Below, in pieces: positions 8,394 through 25,771 of a stretch of 26,114 bases of DNA. The position numbers and the translations under genes were made by a program. Origin of the DNA: a virus; IMG/VR virus record IMGVR_UViG_3300020421_000120, positions 1 through 26,114 of that record; one strand, 5' to 3'. How positions within the stretch are numbered: position 1 is the first letter of the stretch; every line of letters starts with the position of its first letter. Under the pieces are notes generated by a model that had not been told where the DNA came from, ran no database searches, and was given only the letters and a program-made list of their open reading frames with translations.

Positions 8394-8846
8394 CTACCTT
8401 TTTAGGCGAAGATGATGAGTTGCTACTTTTTCATTGTCTGATATTGTATTATCATTATTCAAGTCATACTCTACACCGTCTCTTAGTACTAAATCCATTT
8501 CACGTTCATACTCTGCTCTGTAGTGTTCCATCTTTCTTTCAAAGACGTCTACGTCAGGTTCAAATCGTGATAGTTTTGGATAAATGTGATACCCCAATGC
8601 TTGATAGACACAGGCACGGGTCAATTGACTTGGTGTGAATAACTCTTCGTCTGGCTCTTGATTACCACCAGCCACGTGCTTTACATCGTAAAGTCCAATT
8701 TGCTGTGTGGGCCACCAACGAATGCGTAAATCTCTAAAAACATCTGATTGTGCTTTTACGATTTCGCCGTCAAAGTCTGAAATACCGTAATTTTCAATGT
8801 CTGGCTCAAATGCCGCGACATCAGTGATTGTTGCTAATATAGCCAT
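8394..8846 (-). CDS. Head-tail connector / adaptor protein
   Basis: The product is 150 aa and mainly helical, with LTRACVYQALGYHIYPKLS at about 77-95 and a long charged helix (FERKMEHYRAEYEREMDLVL). It is the first gene after the major capsid gene, the usual place for an adaptor that binds under the portal. Near the end, DLNNDNTISDNE matches the 12-residue EF-hand/dockerin-type loop (D, N, D, T, S, E at positions 1, 3, 5, 7, 9, 12), which could bind Ca2+. CAGGA precedes the ATG by 6 bases. The adaptor function is inferred mostly from position and helical build. Confidence 0.7.
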   Translation of the reverse strand: MAILATITDVAAFEPDIENYGISDFDGEIVKAQSDVFRDLRIRWWPTQQIGLYDVKHVAGGNQEPDEELFTPSQLTRACVYQALGYHIYPKLSRFEPDVDVFERKMEHYRAEYEREMDLVLRDGVEYDLNNDNTISDNEKVATHHLRLKR

Positions 8847-8893
8847 AGGGTCCTGCTCCTAACATTATTGGTGAAGTCCTTCTTCATCCATTT

Positions 8894-8902
8894 GTATTTA
8901 TT
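8894..8902 (-). promoter_or_regulatory. T4-late-like promoter motif before the connector/tail operon
   Basis: The minus strand reads AATAAATAC 47 bases before the connector start and immediately after the terminator hairpin. It matches the core of the T4-type late promoter (TATAAATA). A promoter here would restart transcription for neck and tail genes after termination behind the capsid gene. Similar motifs occur in the other long gaps of this strand. Confidence 0.5.
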
Positions 8903-8907
8903 CGTAT

Positions 8908-8938
8908 AAAAGAATAGGGCGCCAAAACGCCCTATTCT
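8908..8938 (-). terminator. Rho-independent terminator after the major capsid gene
   Basis: Perfect 11-bp arms, 8911-8921 (AGAATAGGGCG) and 8928-8938, enclose a 6-nt loop. On the minus strand the stem is followed by a short T run (CTTTTATA). It begins 17 bases past the capsid stop. The stem is strong and the T run is short, so partial read-through is possible. This is the only clear terminator seen in the window. Confidence 0.82.
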
Positions 8939-10535: not shown

Positions 10536-10591
10536 ATTATTTCCTCTTTCTATTTGGTTGAGTTACCACCTGCCCTTTGACAGTACTGTTT

Positions 10592-10599
10592 GTATTTAG
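10592..10599 (-). promoter_or_regulatory. T4-late-like promoter motif before scaffold/capsid genes
   Basis: CTAAATAC on the minus strand lies 56 bases before the scaffold start, in the 84-nt gap after the tiny basic gene. It shares the 8-mer with the motifs at 21996-22004 and 25188-25196. A 10-bp palindrome ACAGTACTGT (10580-10589) follows it closely. It probably drives scaffold and capsid expression. Confidence 0.5.
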
Positions 10600-10619: not shown

Positions 10620-10697
10620 CTATTTACGGCGCATACCGCCTCTTGTAGATTTCTTTTTCTTATCTTTTTTCTTTTTGCCGCCTCTTGATTTAGCCAT
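10620..10697 (-). CDS. Tiny Lys/Arg-rich peptide (25 aa)
   Basis: ATG at 10697 is preceded by AAGGAG at ideal spacing and runs for 25 codons to TAG at 10622-10620. Fourteen of 25 residues are Lys or Arg; it begins MAKSRGGKKKK and ends GGMRRK. It directly follows the 86-aa basic gene and precedes the scaffold operon. The extreme charge suggests binding of DNA or of acidic scaffold, but no function is established. The strong ribosome site and its snug place between genes argue that it is real. Confidence 0.7.
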   Translation of the reverse strand: MAKSRGGKKKKDKKKKSTRGGMRRK

Positions 10698-14367: not shown

Positions 14368-15801
14368 TCATTCTCTCCTATCCAGTGGGTCGCCTGCAAC
14401 CTCCACTAATTTTTTGTGTTGTGTTTTAAGAGTTCGTGTTTCAGACGGCACATTGAATTCTCTTATCTCTTCAATAATACTATTTACCCGTGTTTCAGAA
14501 TTAGGCGTGTAAATCCGTCTTTCTTCTTCAATTCCTAACAATCTGGACTCAGAATCTATAGTATAAACTCTAAACGGATCAATTATGTAAATTGTTAGAG
14601 CACTTACTTGAACAGTAAATGCTTGGATGTCTATAATCCCGCCATTTAATTTACCACCAACCCAACGTGTAGTTTGGAAGTTACTTGACATACTTGCTTC
14701 AGCAAATACAGCCTTTATTGCATCAACTGTTGTAGTAAATGATCCTGCTTGTATAACAGTTGCGTCTGTTGTTGCTGTTGCATCTGAAGTTAAACTAAAT
14801 GAACTTGTTAGGTTAGCAACAAACGGTCTTGTTCTACTTGGAGTTGCTTGTACAGTTGCGTTCGCTTGTGGCGTTGCAACGCCTGATGCAATTCTATCAG
14901 CATCAACTACAAGTGTGCCTGATGAACTTATAGCAATTGGTTGACTGTTTACTTGGAATATACCATTTGCTACAAGTGAAGCCGCACTTGCTATTTGAAC
15001 GTTTTCACTTACAACATTTGTTGTACCTTGTGCTGTAACTGTTGCACTTACACTTAGATCTGCTGAGCCAACAACTTCAAATTGTCCTGTAACGTCAACT
15101 GTAAATGCGCCTGCTGGTGATATATTTGCTATTGCTGTTACATCACCATCTGCTGTAAGTGTTGCACTTGTGCTTATACTTGATTGACCTTGTGCAAATG
15201 CATCAGCAAATGTTTCAACCATTGGTCCCCAGACTATATCTTGAGGATCATCCCATGTTGCACTACTACTCCATAGAGTAGGATGTGTTTGGAATGCGTT
15301 GATGTCTACGACACCAACAAGGTTTGCTACTGCTGAACTTGATACAGTTGCACTTACACTTATATCGCCGCCTGGCGATACTATTGCGTTTGCTGTTACA
15401 CCTGTTGTAAAGGCAGGTGATAAACTAACAACGCCGCCTGCTATTCTATCTGCATCTGTTGAAGTTGTTGCATTTGTTGAAATGCTTGATGTAGCACCTG
15501 CAATCCTGTCGCCGTCTACTGCGGTACTAAATGCTCCTGCTGGTATACTTACACCAACAAGTGTTGCATCTCCGTCTGCTGTTGTGACAGTTATACTGAC
15601 GCTTGATGTAATTGAGCCTGAGTCAATAAGGAACCCACCCTTAGCGGTTGCTGATGCACTTGCTGAAAGTGCCGCACTACCTTCTATGGTATCTTGGGTA
15701 TATCCTACATTGACATATAGGTCACTATCTGTTCCAACGAAATTGTCTGTAACATATCCGTCAGTAAGATAGTCATTATTGGCTATTACATAAAGTGCCA
15801 T
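14368..15801 (-). CDS. Repeat-rich fiber or appendage protein
   Basis: The product is 477 aa. After a short N-terminus (VIANNDYLTDGYVTDNFVG) it carries many imperfect repeats of about 30-40 residues rich in Ser, Ala, Thr and Val, with recurrent DADRIAGG, SPGGDISVSAT and SPAGAFTVD units. A stacked-beta fiber is likely. The C-terminal part changes to a charged repeat, SESRLLGIEEERRIYTPN then SETRVNSIIEEIREFNVP then SETRTLKTQHKKL, three units of about 18 residues. No enzymatic motif is seen. It sits in the fiber block, so a virion surface or tail appendage role is likely. The ribosome site before the ATG is weak. Confidence 0.72.
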   Translation of the reverse strand: MALYVIANNDYLTDGYVTDNFVGTDSDLYVNVGYTQDTIEGSAALSASASATAKGGFLIDSGSITSSVSITVTTADGDATLVGVSIPAGAFSTAVDGDRIAGATSSISTNATTSTDADRIAGGVVSLSPAFTTGVTANAIVSPGGDISVSATVSSSAVANLVGVVDINAFQTHPTLWSSSATWDDPQDIVWGPMVETFADAFAQGQSSISTSATLTADGDVTAIANISPAGAFTVDVTGQFEVVGSADLSVSATVTAQGTTNVVSENVQIASAASLVANGIFQVNSQPIAISSSGTLVVDADRIASGVATPQANATVQATPSRTRPFVANLTSSFSLTSDATATTDATVIQAGSFTTTVDAIKAVFAEASMSSNFQTTRWVGGKLNGGIIDIQAFTVQVSALTIYIIDPFRVYTIDSESRLLGIEEERRIYTPNSETRVNSIIEEIREFNVPSETRTLKTQHKKLVEVAGDPLDRRE

Positions 15802-15816: not shown

Positions 15817-16248
15817 TTAAGCCAGTGTAATAGTCAAATTGCCTGTAGTAATTTGGAAAGTATCGCCGTCTTGGATAGTTTTACTTGTTGCCAATGTACC
15901 GTAGAACAACACATTGCCTGAACCATGTGATGCACCATCCATAATTGCAACGTGAGTAATCGCACCCCAGTCACCACCGTTAGCAGGATCAAATGTTACG
16001 TTTGCGTTTGTAGTAATTGTACCACCTGGTGAACTTGCCGCCGCAAATGTTACTGCTTTTCTGGCGTAATCATTTGAGTTGCCAACTTCGTCAGTTAGTG
16101 TACCTGCTTCTAAATTAGCGTTGGTAGTTGCTGTGTCTACTGTTTCTTTGAACAACCCTACGTAAACTGTAGTAGGCGAAGTGTATGCTGTGTTTCTTAG
16201 AACATGGTCCAGTAAGGCCGTTTCTAAGTAGTTACTTGCTTGACTCAT
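15817..16248 (-). CDS. Small tail fiber-type virion protein
   Basis: The product is 143 aa. It begins QASNYLETALLDHVLRNTAY, TSPTTVYVGLFKE, and continues with YARKAVTFAAASSPGGTITT, GGDWGAITHVAIMDG and a final LFYGTLATSKTIQDGDTFQI. This 'NYLE.alldHvlrnt.yt.P..vYvaLf' family is widespread as a small structural protein in marine phages and is often called tail fiber protein. AAGGAGA lies upstream of the ATG. It is beta-rich, with no catalytic residues seen. Family recognition is good; its exact place in the virion is not known. Confidence 0.78.
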   Translation of the reverse strand: MSQASNYLETALLDHVLRNTAYTSPTTVYVGLFKETVDTATTNANLEAGTLTDEVGNSNDYARKAVTFAAASSPGGTITTNANVTFDPANGGDWGAITHVAIMDGASHGSGNVLFYGTLATSKTIQDGDTFQITTGNLTITLA

Positions 16249-16276: not shown

Positions 16277-16288
16277 TTGTATATACAA
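16277..16288. promoter_or_regulatory. 12-bp perfect palindrome TTGTATATACAA
   Basis: TTGTATATACAA reads the same on both strands. It lies between the late-like motif (16291-16299) and the gene starting at 16248, around where a transcript from that motif would begin. It could bind a dimeric regulator or be chance in AT-rich DNA. Confidence 0.3.
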
Positions 16289-16290
16289 AC

Positions 16291-16299
16291 ATATTTATT
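16291..16299 (-). promoter_or_regulatory. T4-late-like promoter motif before small fiber gene
   Basis: AATAAATAT on the minus strand lies in the 73-nt gap between the second paralogous fiber gene and the small fiber gene, 42 bases before its start. It matches TATAAATA except at the first base. It may drive the small fiber, repeat protein, terminase and portal genes. Confidence 0.45.
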
Positions 16300-21242: not shown

Positions 21243-21962
21243 TTACGCTTGGAAGTCTGTTGCTATTGAGGCAAAATAGTTTGTTCCGTCTGGTGTATGG
21301 ATACTAACAATACTATCATTAGTAAGTGTTTTGTTTCCGCCTGCAAATTTATATGTACCTGTTCCTGTTGCTGATCCTGATCCACTTACAATAAGTGTAA
21401 TAGTTTGGCCTGCGGCCGCATCTGTAAATGCACTCAATGCCAATCCTGAACTAATAGTTACTGTCTTAACATTTCCTGTTGATACAGTAAGTCCTGGTGA
21501 ATCGTTTGATCCAATTGCTTCAACTGTTTCTGCGTAGTCTTTTAAGATTGGATTTGTAATAAGTTCGCCTTGTGCGTCAAGTTCTCCACCAAGTTGTGGT
21601 GAAGTGTCTTCTACAACATTAGAAATACCACCGCTTGATATAGTTGTAAAACTAAGGTTTCCGCCACCGTCTGTTTGTAGTACTTGAGCGTTTGTGCCAT
21701 CTGCTGTTGGCCAACTTAAACCATCAAGTATAACCTTACCTGATCCGTCTGGCGTGATTGTAATGTTGCCATTTGATACACTTTGAATACCTTGACCATT
21801 AACATCTAATGGTCCGCCAAGTTGTGGTGTTGTATCATCACCAAGGTCGTTCATTTTGTTTGTAAGTAGGTCAACGAAGTTGTTGTCTAATTCTGCGTAT
21901 GTGAGTGAACTACCTTTAGTAGTTGCTCCTGCACTTGATTCTTGTCTTAGCGTAATAGCCAT
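21243..21962 (-). CDS. Tail fiber protein (N-terminal tail-binding type)
   Basis: The product is 239 aa. ITLRQESSAGATTKGSSLTY with AELDNNFVDLL is the common tail-attachment start of phage fibers. Two copies of a repeat follow: DTTPQLGGPLDVNGQGI (about 42-58) and DTSPQLGGELDAQGELI (about 117-133). The last part, GTYKFAGGNKTL then SIVSIHTPDGTNYFASIAT, is a typical fiber-tip beta segment. GGAG lies upstream of the ATG. It opens the fiber operon behind a late-like motif. A virion fiber is a safe call; the receptor is unknown. Confidence 0.82.
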   Translation of the reverse strand: MAITLRQESSAGATTKGSSLTYAELDNNFVDLLTNKMNDLGDDTTPQLGGPLDVNGQGIQSVSNGNITITPDGSGKVILDGLSWPTADGTNAQVLQTDGGGNLSFTTISSGGISNVVEDTSPQLGGELDAQGELITNPILKDYAETVEAIGSNDSPGLTVSTGNVKTVTISSGLALSAFTDAAAGQTITLIVSGSGSATGTGTYKFAGGNKTLTNDSIVSIHTPDGTNYFASIATDFQA

Positions 21963-21995
21963 AATAATTGTCTCCAGGTTTTTTTTGCGTCAACA

Positions 21996-22004
21996 GTATT
22001 TAGC
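21996..22004 (-). promoter_or_regulatory. T4-late-like promoter motif before fiber operon
   Basis: GCTAAATAC (extending to GCTAAATACT) lies on the minus strand directly after the stop of the last accessory gene and 33 bases before the fiber start. The same 10-mer is found at 25187-25196, before the first gene of the strand. It probably starts the fiber transcript. Confidence 0.55.
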
Positions 22005-22466
22005 CTAACGGTTATAATAGGTGTAATAATCCGTCATTTTCGCTAAGTGATTACGTTTTTCTTGTAGTGTGCTTCGTTTTTGTAGTATTATAAGAGGTTC
22101 TGTGTAGTTGTATTCTATAGGAAATGGTGCACCTTCACTGTCAGGACACATAGCAAGGCATTCTACATCTTTTGTTTTGAACTTCTTGTTTATAGCATCT
22201 ACTTCTTTGTGTACTCTGTCAAAGTCCCAATCAAATCCATATACAATAACTGCTTCTAAGCCAAACTGTCTGTTAAACGTGGCAAAGTTTTCTGCTACTG
22301 TCATAGGTGTTGTACTTTCTACCAAACTTATACGATCCATATATTGTTGTAGGTAAGGACATATTGCATGACCACCAAGACGTTTGCGTGGCTTGGCTAT
22401 CACACGTTTTAACCATCTCCAAATATTAGTGGTGTTGTTCTTTGACGTTGGCTTGGGTAAATTCAC
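22005..22466 (-). CDS. Unknown protein with conserved CP motif (accessory cassette)
   Basis: The product is about 153 aa. It begins basic (WRWLKRVIAKPRKRLGGHAI, CPYLQQY), then FNRQFGLEAVIVYGFDWDFD, DVECLAMCPDSEGAPFPI and an ending KMTDYYTYYNR. Two Cys-Pro pairs (ICPYL, MCPDS) stand out. Its general shape recalls DUF1415-like proteins, but I cannot confirm this. GTG at 22466 has GGAG 6 bases upstream; the ATG at 22478 has no ribosome site, so GTG is preferred. It overlaps the upstream gene's end by about 40 bases. Function is unknown. Confidence 0.6.
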   Translation of the reverse strand: MNLPKPTSKNNTTNIWRWLKRVIAKPRKRLGGHAICPYLQQYMDRISLVESTTPMTVAENFATFNRQFGLEAVIVYGFDWDFDRVHKEVDAINKKFKTKDVECLAMCPDSEGAPFPIEYNYTEPLIILQKRSTLQEKRNHLAKMTDYYTYYNR

Positions 22467-22953
22467 AAGATTCTCCATTAGGTAAATGTATTACAAATTC
22501 GCATTCAGTGTTATTGAATATGTTGTCCCATAAAGGTCTCCACCATTCGTGTAGTGGACGAGGTCTTGCTCTGTCAATAAGTGTGTCCATTTGACTTGTG
22601 ATATCTGTTGACCACATACTGTCAAATCCCCATAGGTTAATTTGTTTTGAAAATCTCATTAGATACTCTGCGGCATGAAGGCCTGCGTTGTATCTGTTTT
22701 TGCGTTCATAGACAGGATGCCAATCACCGCCTATGTTTTTTCCTTGTGCTATTGTTTTGATTGTTTGAGTACAATATATAGGTACTGTGGGATGATAGTT
22801 GTGTTTTTTCATCCATACTAAAACTTCGCCATCTATGATACTCATACCTTGATGCTTTATACCATGTTGAGGAATATTGCAAACAAGATTATAAGAGTCA
22901 TCGCTTGTAAAAAGTTTATTTGAGGGTCCATTGCCTATAAGGTTACTCTTCAT
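22426..22953 (-). CDS. GNGPS-type protein, sialyltransferase / DUF115-like (tentative)
   Basis: The product is 175 aa. LIGNGPSNKLF at the start and NLVCNIPQHG after it match the 'ivGNGPS.......d.v..cN' start of GT42/GT29-like sialyltransferases and DUF115 (MptE-like) proteins. NAGLHAAEYLM at about 90-100 and INLWGFDSMWS at about 106-116 match the later 'S.G..A...a...g...I.L.GfD' part. It is shorter than full family enzymes. A nucleotide-sugar transferase role on host or virion glycans is possible. The next gene with the GT-B-like motif is in the same cassette. Overlap with the upstream gene is 11 bases. Confidence 0.55.
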   Translation of the reverse strand: MKSNLIGNGPSNKLFTSDDSYNLVCNIPQHGIKHQGMSIIDGEVLVWMKKHNYHPTVPIYCTQTIKTIAQGKNIGGDWHPVYERKNRYNAGLHAAEYLMRFSKQINLWGFDSMWSTDITSQMDTLIDRARPRPLHEWWRPLWDNIFNNTECEFVIHLPNGESCEFTQANVKEQHH

Positions 22954-23137
22954 CCAAATCAGTCTCCATTAAATGTATTTTTGTTTTTAAGACATTGTAA
23001 TCTTCTCTTAATTCATTTATAGTTTTAATGATAACCTTTTGGTTGGTTAATAAATTTGTTAGATGCTTGTCTGCACGTTCGCACCAAGCATTTAACTCTA
23101 ATAAGTTTTGATATGGATCAAAGTCACCTTTTATCAT
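22943..23137 (-). CDS. Small coiled-coil protein of unknown function
   Basis: The product is 64 aa and mainly helical. It begins IKGDFDPYQNLLELNAWCER, then ADKHLTNLLTNQKVIIKTIN and LREDYNVLKTKIHLMETDL. Regular spacing of Leu/Ile/Val suggests a coiled coil. The start overlaps the upstream stop as ATGA. I recognise no enzymatic family. A small helper or structural role is the most that can be said. Confidence 0.65.
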   Translation of the reverse strand: MIKGDFDPYQNLLELNAWCERADKHLTNLLTNQKVIIKTINELREDYNVLKTKIHLMETDLDEE

Positions 23138-23592
23138 ATTATTCTATCCCTATACCATTTCTGTGAAGGCTCTAAAGTTGCGGCATCTTGCAACGCCCAA
23201 CCTCTTTCAACCCTATGTGCAAAAGTGTGTCTCTTTATTCCATTCTCTCTTGCTATTTTGCCATAGTATGCTACTTCATCTGGATCTTGATGTTTTCTAC
23301 ATCTGTTCATGTTTGTTTCTTTGGTTGTCCATTCAACATTGCCAGGTTCATAATCACCTATCTTGCTGACCCTATCCATTACCATATCTTCACTTGGCTT
23401 TGGACCTATATGATCTAACCATTCTAAGAATCCTTCTGATCCTTTCCATTCTTCACATACTTGTATGTCTACATAATATTTGGCTTGCTTACGGCAACTC
23501 CAAATCATTTTATACCATACTCTCCATTCATCAAGATACTCTTTACGCATCTCTGTATATAATGGATCATATTCTTTTTTCTTTTTAGTCAT
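23134..23592 (-). CDS. HNH endonuclease-like protein, catalytic site degenerate
   Basis: The product is 152 aa. The middle (VCEEWKGSEGFLEWLDHIGP, KPSEDMVMDRVSKIGDYEPG, NVEWTTKETNMNRCRKH) follows the pattern of phage HNH proteins ('i...W..f..F..dmG.rPs..hsldRidn.gnYepgNcrWat..eq..Nrr'). The catalytic His before 'DR' is replaced by Met (MVMDR), so cleavage is doubtful. The end (ARENGIKRHTFAHRVERGWA) is a helix-turn-helix-like DNA-binding part often attached to this family. AAGGA precedes the ATG. It may be a retired homing-type nuclease or a DNA-binding regulator. Confidence 0.68.
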   Translation of the reverse strand: MTKKKKEYDPLYTEMRKEYLDEWRVWYKMIWSCRKQAKYYVDIQVCEEWKGSEGFLEWLDHIGPKPSEDMVMDRVSKIGDYEPGNVEWTTKETNMNRCRKHQDPDEVAYYGKIARENGIKRHTFAHRVERGWALQDAATLEPSQKWYRDRII

Positions 23593-23932
23593 TGTTTTTC
23601 CTTACGGCATGACGATCTTCCCAATCACGTTTAGGTATGCTTTTGTGTATGTTCTCCAAGCAACCTTTGATTAGGTGTTTACGTCTACTCACAACAATAC
23701 AGTTGTGCGGTCCCCATGCTTCTATTTCGTCTTTGCGTACCATAACGTATTGATACGGTTTGTTTCCCCTATGCTCTTTTACACCACTGTCTTCCCACAT
23801 GGTGTACCATGTTTCTAACGTGAATGCCCATTCATGTTTTTGAAACTTTGCTTGTGCTTTTGAACGACTGTATTTCTTAATCCAATCATAGGGTATATTC
23901 GTTGGATTGTCGTATGTCTTTGTAAACGGCAT
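23585..23932 (-). CDS. Second HNH-like degenerate protein
   Basis: The product is 115 aa. It begins PFTKTYDNPTNIPYDWIKKY, then WAFTLETWYTMWEDSGVKEH and YQYVMVRKDEIEAWGPHNCI, then VVSRRKHLIKG. This is a looser version of the neighbour's pattern ('..W...MG....Y.mvR.D..G.w.p.Nc.i....e..'), with no catalytic His in place before 'vRkD'. The two may be distant paralogs. Start 23932 has AGGAAAG 6 bases upstream; a longer start at 23974 would overlap the glycosyltransferase-like gene more. Function is likely DNA binding, if any. Confidence 0.55.
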   Translation of the reverse strand: MPFTKTYDNPTNIPYDWIKKYSRSKAQAKFQKHEWAFTLETWYTMWEDSGVKEHRGNKPYQYVMVRKDEIEAWGPHNCIVVSRRKHLIKGCLENIHKSIPKRDWEDRHAVRKNND

Positions 23933-24794
23933 TTGTTCTTTCCTGTCTAAGATAACCAGCGTCTGGATGTACATCTATCCAACTCCAATCATCTAATTCT
24001 GTTGTGTGGTATGTATAGGCACAACAACGTGTGACCCATTCATCTATAATTGTAGCATCATATTCAATAACATCACCATGTTCAAGAAAATGATCCCAAG
24101 GAGTTGCTACACTACTCGCAGGGTTCCATTCGCTTGTTACAATAGCAGGCACACCAATGCAAACTGCTTCGCTTGCCGCGGCGCTGTGATTGGCCAATAC
24201 ACAATCAAAGCCTCCTTCTCGTATCTGTGTTGACACTTGATTGTTCTTGCGACTGTCAATGCCAACTTTGTTTCTTATTTCATATGTGTAACCATAGTGT
24301 TCAAGCACAGGTCTTACACGATTCCACCAAGTGTTCCAAGTGGTGTTGTAGTACTCACGATAGTTTCTATCTGAACTTCTTATCACAAGGCAATGACGGT
24401 CTGACAGAGGTGATGTAGAACGTATGCCGTTCCATATGTCTGTGATGTCTTGTATGACGCCTCTTGAGTGTTCTTGGAGTAGTGTGTTTAATCTGTGTCT
24501 GTGTTCTTGTTGTGGAGGATATTTTGCTGGTACTGTCCAACCACAGTATGTTAGTCTTTGCCATGTCTTTAATCCTTTGGGATTGTGTGCGTGTGGATAA
24601 CGCAGATGTGGTAATAAACTGTTGTCTTGCCAAAACCAACGAAAGCCTTTGGGCTCGTCACCTGGCTTGTACATAGTGTTGGGTTCACAACCACGTAGTA
24701 GATATGTACTGCGGGTGTTTACACCGTCAAGTGGTGTTGGATAGCGACTTTGTATACCATAGTAACCCCAACCGTTGCCTTTCGCACTATCCAT
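23886..24794 (-). CDS. GT-B-like glycosyltransferase
   Basis: The product is 302 aa. The C-terminal part holds FDCVLANHSAAASEAVCIGV then PAIVTSEWNPAS (about 196-228), the typical nucleotide-sugar binding pattern of GT-B transferases ('vv.nhS.aa.eA...GvP.iv'). Before it are HCLVIRSSDRNYREYYNTTW and VLEHYGYTYEIRNKVG, strand-helix units of a Rossmann-like half. The first half is rich in Trp, Tyr, Arg and Pro. GGGGAG lies 6 bases before the ATG at 24794, so this start is preferred over 24800. It may modify virion or host surface sugars or phage DNA. Substrate is not known. Confidence 0.62.
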   Translation of the reverse strand: MDSAKGNGWGYYGIQSRYPTPLDGVNTRSTYLLRGCEPNTMYKPGDEPKGFRWFWQDNSLLPHLRYPHAHNPKGLKTWQRLTYCGWTVPAKYPPQQEHRHRLNTLLQEHSRGVIQDITDIWNGIRSTSPLSDRHCLVIRSSDRNYREYYNTTWNTWWNRVRPVLEHYGYTYEIRNKVGIDSRKNNQVSTQIREGGFDCVLANHSAAASEAVCIGVPAIVTSEWNPASSVATPWDHFLEHGDVIEYDATIIDEWVTRCCAYTYHTTELDDWSWIDVHPDAGYLRQERTNAVYKDIRQSNEYTL

Positions 24795-25026
24795 AGTCAT
24801 CTCCCCATAATATTCTACGCTGTTGTGGTGTTAGATCGTTTGCGTTTTTGTAACTCAACAAATTGGCCTGTTGTACTGTGATTGTGTCAACGTCTTCACA
24901 ACGTTTCATAATGTATTCGTTTGTGTCAAAATCAAAATCAGCCGTGTACCAACCTTGTTTGAGTTGCTCAGTTTGCCACACACCATCTTTGTCAGACGTG
25001 TTAGGGATTCGCTTTATCCTAACCAT
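24787..25026 (-). CDS. Hypothetical protein
   Basis: The product is 79 aa with this start (VRIKRIPNTSDKDGVW); an upstream ATG at 25065 would give 92 aa. Neither has a clear ribosome site. The shorter one begins 13 bases inside the end of the membrane-protein gene, which favours coupled translation. It has a beta-rich first half with WYTADFDFDTNEYIMK and a helical end LTPQQRRILWGDDYG. No family is recognised. The stop overlaps the next start region by 8 bases. Confidence 0.6.
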   Translation of the reverse strand: MVRIKRIPNTSDKDGVWQTEQLKQGWYTADFDFDTNEYIMKRCEDVDTITVQQANLLSYKNANDLTPQQRRILWGDDYG

Positions 25027-25166
25027 TGCCAAAGTATGGTTGAAATAGTAAGTGCCCAACCACATATCATTATCATACTCAGCACACCATTCAATAGCAC
25101 AGGTGATCGTGTGTAGTGTTTCAAACTGTCCATTGCATCGTTCAATTCTTTTGTTGTATCTCTCAT
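25014..25166 (-). CDS. Small single-span membrane protein (50 aa)
   Basis: Start 25166 was chosen for GAGGAGT right before it. The product has a polar helical first half (RDTTKELNDAMDSLKHYTRS) and one hydrophobic segment at about 24-46 (VLLNGVLSMIMICGWALTIS). It is the first gene of the minus-strand block. Its size and single span would fit a holin-like or other small membrane protein, but there is no endolysin beside it, so this remains open. Confidence 0.62.
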   Translation of the reverse strand: MRDTTKELNDAMDSLKHYTRSPVLLNGVLSMIMICGWALTISTILWQWLG

Positions 25167-25187
25167 AGTTACTCCTCTTTTGATGTA

Positions 25188-25196
25188 GTATTTAGC
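25188..25196 (-). promoter_or_regulatory. T4-late-like promoter motif at head of minus-strand block
   Basis: GCTAAATAC on the minus strand lies 21 bases before the membrane-protein start. It is the same 10-mer context (GCTAAATACT) as before the fiber operon. No good -35 partner is seen for it, as in T4-type late promoters. Confidence 0.55.
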
Positions 25197-25204
25197 AAGG
25201 TAAC

Positions 25205-25212
25205 ATAAATAC
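25205..25212 (+). promoter_or_regulatory. Late-like motif on plus strand (ATAAATAC)
   Basis: ATAAATAC lies head to head with the minus-strand motif at 25188-25196 and just ahead of the sigma70 -35 box. It may allow late expression of the plus-strand genes or be chance. Confidence 0.3.
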
Positions 25213-25213
25213 A

Positions 25214-25242
25214 TTGACAAACACGGCGAAAGGTGTTATAAT
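25214..25242 (+). promoter_or_regulatory. Consensus sigma70 promoter (TTGACA-17-TATAAT)
   Basis: TTGACA at 25214-25219 and TATAAT at 25237-25242 are separated by exactly 17 bases. Transcription would begin near 25249 and run into the gene at 25265, whose AAGGAGA site is at 25254-25260. The perfect match points to strong transcription by host RNA polymerase soon after infection. Confidence 0.88.
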
Positions 25243-25264: not shown

Positions 25265-25771
25265 ATGACAGTAACATTAGACATAGAAACAATCGCAGGC
25301 GCAACAGGTGTTAGCCTCAATCAAATGAACCAATATATCAATAGTCAAGGTGCAATAGCACCATCAAGTGCTCTTATCAAAGGTTGGCACGAATATGACA
25401 ACACAATTTGGAAGTGTATATTGTGTTGTGCTCGTATACTCGTAGATGACCATAAAATACAAGTACCAGGTTATGTGGACAAGGACATTGACTTCCTACT
25501 CAAGCACATAGATGAATATGGTATACACCACCACAATGTGTTGTATCCAACACCAAAAGAAACTGGTCAATTACACGGTGCAATCACACACGCCAACAGA
25601 GCCAAATATGACAAGACCATTAAGAGTCGTACATTTAGGACTATGATGAACATTCGTGAAAGCCTAAATTCTGCACTTGGTATTGACTTACCAAACGAAG
25701 ACGGTTCACAAGGTCGTTTAGACCCCACTCCTAAGGACACACTATTCACCACAGAATACATGGAAAAATAG
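25265..25771 (+). CDS. Unknown protein, likely early-expressed
   Basis: The product is 168 aa. It begins TVTLDIETIAGATGVSLNQM, has a Cys-containing segment WKCILCCARILVDD at about 49-62, and a basic region HANRAKYDKTIKSRTFRTMM. It ends in a polar tail ending LFTTEYMEK. It lies alone behind a consensus sigma70 promoter with a strong ribosome site. No domain is recognised. Opposite strand and host-type promoter set it apart from the virion genes, suggesting early host takeover or regulation, which is inference. Confidence 0.8.
   Translation: MTVTLDIETIAGATGVSLNQMNQYINSQGAIAPSSALIKGWHEYDNTIWKCILCCARILVDDHKIQVPGYVDKDIDFLLKHIDEYGIHHHNVLYPTPKETGQLHGAITHANRAKYDKTIKSRTFRTMMNIRESLNSALGIDLPNEDGSQGRLDPTPKDTLFTTEYMEK

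What the first reader, a model, noticed from the sequence alone, without database searches (positions are those of the whole stretch)
21996..25196. Shared late-promoter-like motif (GCTAAATACT / AATAAATA) in every long gap of the minus strand
TAAATA on the minus strand occurs by my eye count seven times in the window. Five are in the five gaps longer than 40 bp between minus-strand genes (25188-25196, 21996-22004, 16291-16299, 10592-10599, 8894-8902); these gaps make up only about 400 bp. The other two are 10621-10626 (end of the tiny gene, beside one of the gaps) and 14481-14486 (coding). Two sites share the 10-mer GCTAAATACT. None has a clear -35 box. T4-type late promoters consist of just TATAAATA, read by a gp55-type sigma with the sliding clamp. 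Finding this layout in a siphovirus-type module with lambda-like tail genes would mean T4-style late control, or another phage-encoded factor, in an unexpected kind of phage.
Basis: partly seen in the sequence, partly recalled or inferred. Interest (0 to 1): 0.78.

Follow-up and report, generated by a model that had tools for sequence, protein, structure and literature searches.

The report
T4-type late promoters without gp55
A family of small (~30 kb) aquatic tailed phages appears to switch on its virion genes from TAAATA promoters that look just like those of the big T4-type phages, yet no T4-type sigma factor could be found in their genomes, so the protein that reads them must be disguised, borrowed from the host, or supplied by another phage.

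Summary
The motif is real and looks functional. In related contigs the site is present in 93/93 non-redundant versions of four orthologous gaps, amid diverged sequence. Aligned on TAAATA there is no -35 conservation, but a pyrimidine-purine step stands at +10/+11 (81%). That puts TAAATA at -11..-6, the geometry of T4 late promoters; the loose -12 (A/C) matches cyanomyophage late promoters. The 'coding' site 14481-14486 is also conserved, at synonymous positions, ~120 nt upstream of the terminase/portal operon. An early gene instead has a perfect sigma70 promoter.

The trans-factor is unexplained. No gp55 or sigma70 r2/r4 domain was found in the window or 19-27 relatives, four of them complete/circular; a positive control worked. 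The complete ones share no early gene and show no recognisable replication or endolysin gene. So T4-type form is well supported; self-encoded gp55/gp45 control is not. Open readings: a factor lent by a co-infecting T4-like phage (satellite virus), a cryptic own factor, a host factor. Not shown: transcription, host, or helper dependence. Sister HTVC pelagiphages lack the motif.

The parts
8895..8900 (-). Late promoter TAAATA (predicted +1 at 8889, G) upstream of gene 8394-8846, directly after the capsid-gene terminator
   Evidence: 100% conserved in 32 non-redundant relatives; YR initiator
10593..10598 (-). Late promoter TAAATA (predicted +1 at 10587, A) upstream of the scaffold and major capsid genes
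   Evidence: 100% in 28 non-redundant relatives; YR
16292..16297 (-). Late promoter TAAATA (predicted +1 at 16286, G) upstream of gene 15817-16248 (phrog_240 head protein)
   Evidence: 100% in 22 non-redundant relatives; YR
21997..22002 (-). Late promoter TAAATA (predicted +1 at 21991, G) upstream of gene 21243-21962 and the 1149-aa structural gene
   Evidence: 100% in 11 non-redundant relatives; YR
14481..14486 (-). Intragenic late promoter TAAATA (predicted +1 at 14475, A), inside gene 14368-15801, ~120 nt upstream of the small gene that opens the terminase/portal operon
   Evidence: 27 of 27 relatives correctly extracted; Asn codon AAT and Val/Ile/Leu codon ending in A in 24/24 genomes against 63% and 39-57% elsewhere in the same genes
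25189..25194 (-). Late promoter TAAATA of the divergent region, upstream of minus-strand genes from 25166 down
   Evidence: same layout in G006, LC06, G007, G020, G010; no YR at the standard distance in the window
10621..10626 (-). TAAATA formed by Lys codon plus stop of a tiny basic ORF; probably not a promoter
   Evidence: changes to CAAATA in some relatives; no YR
25206..25211 (+). Plus-strand TAAATA just upstream of the early sigma70 promoter
   Evidence: similar pairing in G006; function unclear
25214..25242 (+). Perfect sigma70 promoter TTGACA-N17-TATAAT for the plus-strand early gene 25265-25771
   Evidence: the same perfect promoter in G006 and LC06
8908..8937 (-). Intrinsic terminator (GC hairpin plus T run) after the major capsid gene, immediately upstream of the 8895 promoter
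   Evidence: sequence; present with changed sequence in most relatives
8848..8886 (-). Two 5'-leader hairpins with nAGnA pentaloops, downstream of the 8895 promoter (8872-8886 and 8848-8859; the second has one mismatch in the window)

Best explanation
The TAAATA sites are -10-only late promoters of the T4 (gp55) type that drive the head, tail and packaging operons of a lineage of ~30-kb siphovirus-like phages. RNA polymerase carrying a gp55-type specificity factor would recognise TAAATA at -11..-6, need no -35 contact, and start at a purine after a pyrimidine 11 nt from the T. Early genes are opened by host sigma70. Shown here: conservation, position and geometry of the sites. Inferred: that they are promoters at all and that a gp55-like factor reads them. 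Unsettled: where the factor comes from. My estimates: a co-infecting T4-like phage 0.40, a cryptic phage-encoded factor 0.30, a host factor 0.20, other 0.10.
For: TAAATA in 93/93 non-redundant gaps, 100% in each of four orthologous gaps; the best non-overlapping hexamer stays below 20% in its weakest gap. Base profile aligned on TAAATA shows nothing comparable at -35. YR step at +10/+11 in 81% (75-89% per gap), against at most 43% at other positions. T4 late promoters are TATAAATA at about -13..-6 with no -35 (PMC2988020), and YR at +10/+11 is also the commonest step at T4 TATAAATA, HTVC008M and cyanomyophage sites. -12 is A 67% / C 25% here and A 53% / C 34% in three cyanomyophages. Intragenic site held at synonymous positions. 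Promoter follows a terminator in the capsid gap. Motif present in all tested relatives down to 60% TerL identity and absent from HTVC026P/111P/112P/202P and most of their kin.
Against: No transcript data. T4's own YR preference is weak and spread over two positions. The window's 25189 site lacks the YR step.
Confidence: 0.75

Rival explanations
1. The phage encodes its own divergent late factor that sequence profiles do not recognise, made from a sigma70-driven early gene.
For: Each complete genome has one or a few sigma70-driven, unique small genes; the window's early protein (25265-25771) is predicted all-helical, like sigma2 domains, but at mean pLDDT 59.
Against: No early gene is shared by the complete motif-bearing genomes; the window's early family is found in 4 genomes only and has no relative among IMG/VR contigs. 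Universal non-structural families are methyltransferases, HNH, GNAT, XhlA-like and a KpsC-like fold. hhalign to gp55 gives <=1.2% probability for all families tested, control 98.9%. Foldseek of the early protein: nothing significant.
Confidence: 0.3
2. A host sigma factor (alternative, or sigma70 with a phage appropriator) reads TAAATA.
For: The early promoters are perfect sigma70 sites, so host RNA polymerase is in use; small genomes commonly lean on the host.
Against: In the register given by the initiator step, sigma70 would need T-12 A-11 ... T-7 where these sites have A/C, T and T; the invariant last A and the lack of any -35 fit no sigma70 class that I know of (own knowledge). No host is known, so no host sigma could be tested.
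Confidence: 0.2
3. TAAATA is not a promoter but a DNA operator, an RNA processing site or part of a leader element.
For: The leaders downstream are structured, and one leader begins with a palindrome.
Against: The site lies at a variable distance from the start codon (34-92 nt), upstream of the hairpins, after terminators, and carries a spaced initiator step; leaders of different gaps share nothing else.
Confidence: 0.06
4. Chance enrichment in AT-rich gaps.
For: Gaps are AT-rich and the hexamer is A/T only.
Against: 93/93 conservation with expectation 10-19% per gap; simulation p<0.001 in the window alone.
Confidence: 0.005

Closest known systems
T4 late promoters (gp55/gp33/gp45; Geiduschek and Kassavetis, PMC2988020; cryo-EM, PMC7892883)
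   Same: -10-type box TAAATA, no -35, start about one helical turn downstream, virion genes
   Different: T4 prefers TA at -13/-12 (14 of 18 sites have A at -12); here -12 is A or C. T4 encodes gp55; these phages show none.
Kyanoviridae (cyanomyophage) late promoters, Syn9, S-RIM8, S-CAM7; and Aeromonas phage Aeh1 (a/gC at -13/-12, PMC2988020)
   Same: A/C at -12, TAAATA, YR at +10/+11; GCTAAATA and ACTAAATA occur in both
   Different: Those are 170-230 kb myoviruses with their own gp55, clamp and replisome
Pelagibacter phages HTVC026P, HTVC111P, HTVC112P, HTVC202P and Dishui Lake phage DSL-LC06 (PMC10611076)
   Same: Same virion module; DSL-LC06 shares the motif in all four gaps
   Different: The HTVC phages lack the motif and have annotated exonuclease, DnaD-domain and lysozyme/peptidase genes
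Virion-encoding satellite phages of the Streptomyces Mulch and Flayer systems (PMC10690885)
   Same: Own capsid/tail genes, no recognised replication genes
   Different: No helper is known here; T4-type promoters were not described there

Membership tests
T4-type late promoter | Conserved -10-like box (TA)TAAATA | tested here: met
   93/93 gaps; first two bases looser than in T4
T4-type late promoter | No conserved -35 element | tested here: met
   Information profile
T4-type late promoter | Box about one helical turn upstream of the start | tested here: inconclusive
   Initiator step at the right distance in 81%, but starts are not mapped
T4-type late promoter | gp55-type sigma encoded by the same phage | tested here: not met
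   0 of 27 relatives, four complete; controls found. The window itself is incomplete
T4-type late promoter | Sliding clamp (gp45) and clamp loader in the same phage | tested here: not met
   None among Pfam/PHROG hits of non-structural ORFs of the complete relatives
T4-type late promoter | gp33 co-activator | not tested
   No gp33 profile was run by name; none appeared in the PHROG scans
T4-type late promoter | Activation coupled to replication | not testable with these tools
   Needs infection experiments
Satellite virus of a phage (Mulch/Flayer type) | Encodes its own virion | tested here: met
   Terminase, portal, scaffold, capsid, tail genes
Satellite virus of a phage (Mulch/Flayer type) | Lacks replication genes | tested here: met
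   None recognised in four complete/circular relatives; absence by homology only, and autonomous sister phages are also poor in them
Satellite virus of a phage (Mulch/Flayer type) | Depends on a helper | not testable with these tools
   No isolate of the motif-bearing lineage is known to me
Satellite virus of a phage (Mulch/Flayer type) | Codon usage matching helper tRNAs | not tested
   No helper identified

The most novel reading that the evidence does not exclude
The lineage is a virophage-like satellite: it builds its own siphovirus particle but uses the late RNA polymerase (gp55, gp33, clamp) and replication and lysis functions of a co-infecting T4-like phage, whose late promoter it copies.
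Probability: 0.35. Interest if true: 0.95.

Novelty: new variant of a known kind. Interest (0 to 1): 0.8.

Why it matters
T4-type late control has been regarded as a property of the T4 supergroup, where it is tied to the phage's own sliding clamp. Here the same promoter is strictly kept in an abundant lineage of small siphovirus-like phages with no visible gp55 or clamp. Either a sigma-like factor exists that present profiles cannot see, or late transcription is borrowed from another phage. The second would be a bacterial counterpart of the virophages. Both are testable with simple in vitro transcription.

Tried and rejected
Host identification through genome contigs gave one lone 28-kb phage contig in a Porticoccaceae MAG, which may be misbinned. 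Accessory genes (HNH, methyltransferases, Asn synthase) were not nearest to T4-like phages, so gene sharing neither supports nor excludes a T4-like helper. The single-subunit RNA polymerase search (PF00940) had no ringing control; I rely on the lack of an unassigned ORF of that size. The structure of the early protein was too poor to use. The TerL tree needs two changes of the motif label, with two long, unsure branches, so single origin is open. In one search one row (L008) was mis-sliced and is not counted. Literature searches found no report of the motif in this lineage, within an open-access library only.

Full report
What was checked. The window is a 26,114-base virus record, 38.8% GC. 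Its minus strand holds a late module: truncated tail fibre, tail genes, tape measure, head-tail genes, major capsid, scaffold, portal, terminase, and further structural and sugar-related genes. Five gaps totalling 409 bp hold one each; no simulation of 20,000 hit all five.

Relatives. Capsid and terminase searches gave about 80 and 65 viral contigs and five named phages: DSL-LC06 and Pelagibacter phages HTVC026P, 111P, 112P, 202P. Orthologous gene starts were located by tblastn and their upstream DNA compared. After reduction to dissimilar sequences and leaving out the motif-less clade, 93 of 93 gaps contain TAAATA: 32/32, 28/28, 22/22 and 11/11 for the four gaps. This holds down to about 27% protein identity of the downstream gene. 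Note that the motif-less loci (HTVC phages, L111, L124, L127, L136) were recognised by lacking it and then excluded; with them the figures are 54/62, 57/60, 31/31 and 15/15 distinct sequences. By terminase identity, every locus at 60% or more that could be scored has it and those at about 54% or less lack it, with one partial exception, L127. DSL-LC06 scores negative after the capsid gene only because an HNH gene is inserted there; its site stands before the downstream gene.

Geometry. Aligned on the T, the six bases are fixed, -12 is A or C, and nothing at -35 is conserved beyond gap-specific homology such as terminators and coding ends. The only other shared signal is pyrimidine-purine at +10/+11, 81% overall and 75-89% in each gap. 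If +11 is the start, TAAATA occupies -11..-6, as in T4, where the octamer lies at about -13..-6 and there is no -35 (PMC2988020). The same step is the commonest one at T4 TATAAATA sites (53%), at HTVC008M sites (73%) and at sites of three cyanomyophages (58%), although a looser T4 set peaks one base earlier. The -12 usage resembles the cyanomyophages (A 53%, C 34%) more than T4. Four of the window's five gap sites, and the intragenic one, have the step; 25189, 10621 and the plus-strand sites do not.

The intragenic site. Within the 477-aa gene, TAAATA stands ~120 nt before the next small gene, which precedes terminase small, terminase large and portal. It is kept in 27 of 27 relatives correctly extracted. 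It spans the end of a Val/Ile/Leu codon, an Asn codon and the next first base; in 24 of 24 genomes the first codon ends in A and Asn is AAT, against 39-57% and 63% elsewhere in these genes (for G006 that script picked a second in-frame site, while its main site is at 15828). This argues for selection on the DNA.

Early genes. The divergent region carries a perfect TTGACA-N17-TATAAT on the plus strand (25214-25242), and similar promoters with a neighbouring TAAATA occur in relatives. Two promoter classes are thus used.

What reads it. The gp55 profile found nothing in 27 related records but found gp55 in T4, HTVC008M and Syn9. sigma70 regions 2 and 4 and a second late-sigma family were absent. 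Profile-profile comparison of every family with gp55 gave at most 1.2% (control 98.9%). Four relatives are circular or have terminal overlaps and are taken as complete: DSL-LC06 (declared circular), G006, G007, G020 (77-91-bp end overlaps). Their shared non-structural families are methyltransferases, an HNH family, a GNAT family, an XhlA-like small protein, and one ~300-aa family. AlphaFold gives the last a confident alpha/beta model whose only near-full-length matches are KpsC-type Kdo transferases, at weak E-values. No early gene is common to them. No polymerase, helicase, clamp or endolysin was recognised. Absence by homology is not proof, and gene calls were made with a simple script.

Interpretation. 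The promoter class is well supported. Because the site is invariant across the lineage while no candidate factor is, the factor is either undetectably diverged or comes from outside. I rank a T4-like co-infecting phage first (0.40): the promoters match theirs, and the genomes look dependent. Satellite phages that encode their virions but lack replication genes are known from Streptomyces (PMC10690885). Against it: the sister HTVC phages are cultured and autonomous although also poor in replication genes, shared accessory genes do not point to T4-like phages, and no host or helper is known. DSL-LC06 was assembled from the same lake as two T4-like cyanophages (PMC10611076), which is compatible but says little.

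Leaders. The transcript leader after the 8895-type promoter folds into two hairpins with nAGnA pentaloops in 84% of relatives against 0.3% of shuffled leaders. The first hairpin covaries at four of its five pairs, 96% of cells paired. The shuffles kept only base composition, and hairpin rows were chosen by their loop, which inflates the pairing count. No Rfam family matches the window.

Noticed in passing
8848-8886 (minus strand): Twin leader hairpins with nAGnA pentaloops between the promoter and the start codon of gene 8394-8846; strongly covarying in relatives, no Rfam match. Possibly a binding site for a protein that controls translation or antitermination.
   Followed up: partly
10556-10583 (minus strand): Scaffold-gene leader also forms two conserved hairpins in relatives.
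   Followed up: partly
16279-16286 (minus strand) and relatives: In the 15817 gap the predicted transcripts of relatives begin with a perfect palindrome of changing sequence (GUUAUAAC, GUUAAUUAAC, AUCGCGAU, GUUGCAAC).
   Followed up: no
10620-10697 (minus strand): Tiny, very basic ORF (MAKSRGGKKKKDKKKKSTRGGMRRK) just before the scaffold promoter; similar ones in relatives.
   Followed up: no
25206-25242 (plus strand): TAAATA directly upstream of a perfect sigma70 promoter; the divergent layout recurs in G006 and LC06.
   Followed up: partly
L139, L155/L156, L157/L158, L165/L166: Complete/circular relatives of 30-33 kb without recognisable replication or endolysin genes but with several sugar and methyl transferases.
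   Followed up: partly
window, whole: TAAATA is about threefold rarer than in dinucleotide shuffles, as if stray sites were avoided; not tested against codon constraints.
   Followed up: no
L187: A related 28-kb phage contig sits in a Porticoccaceae MAG; host link or misbinning.
   Followed up: no
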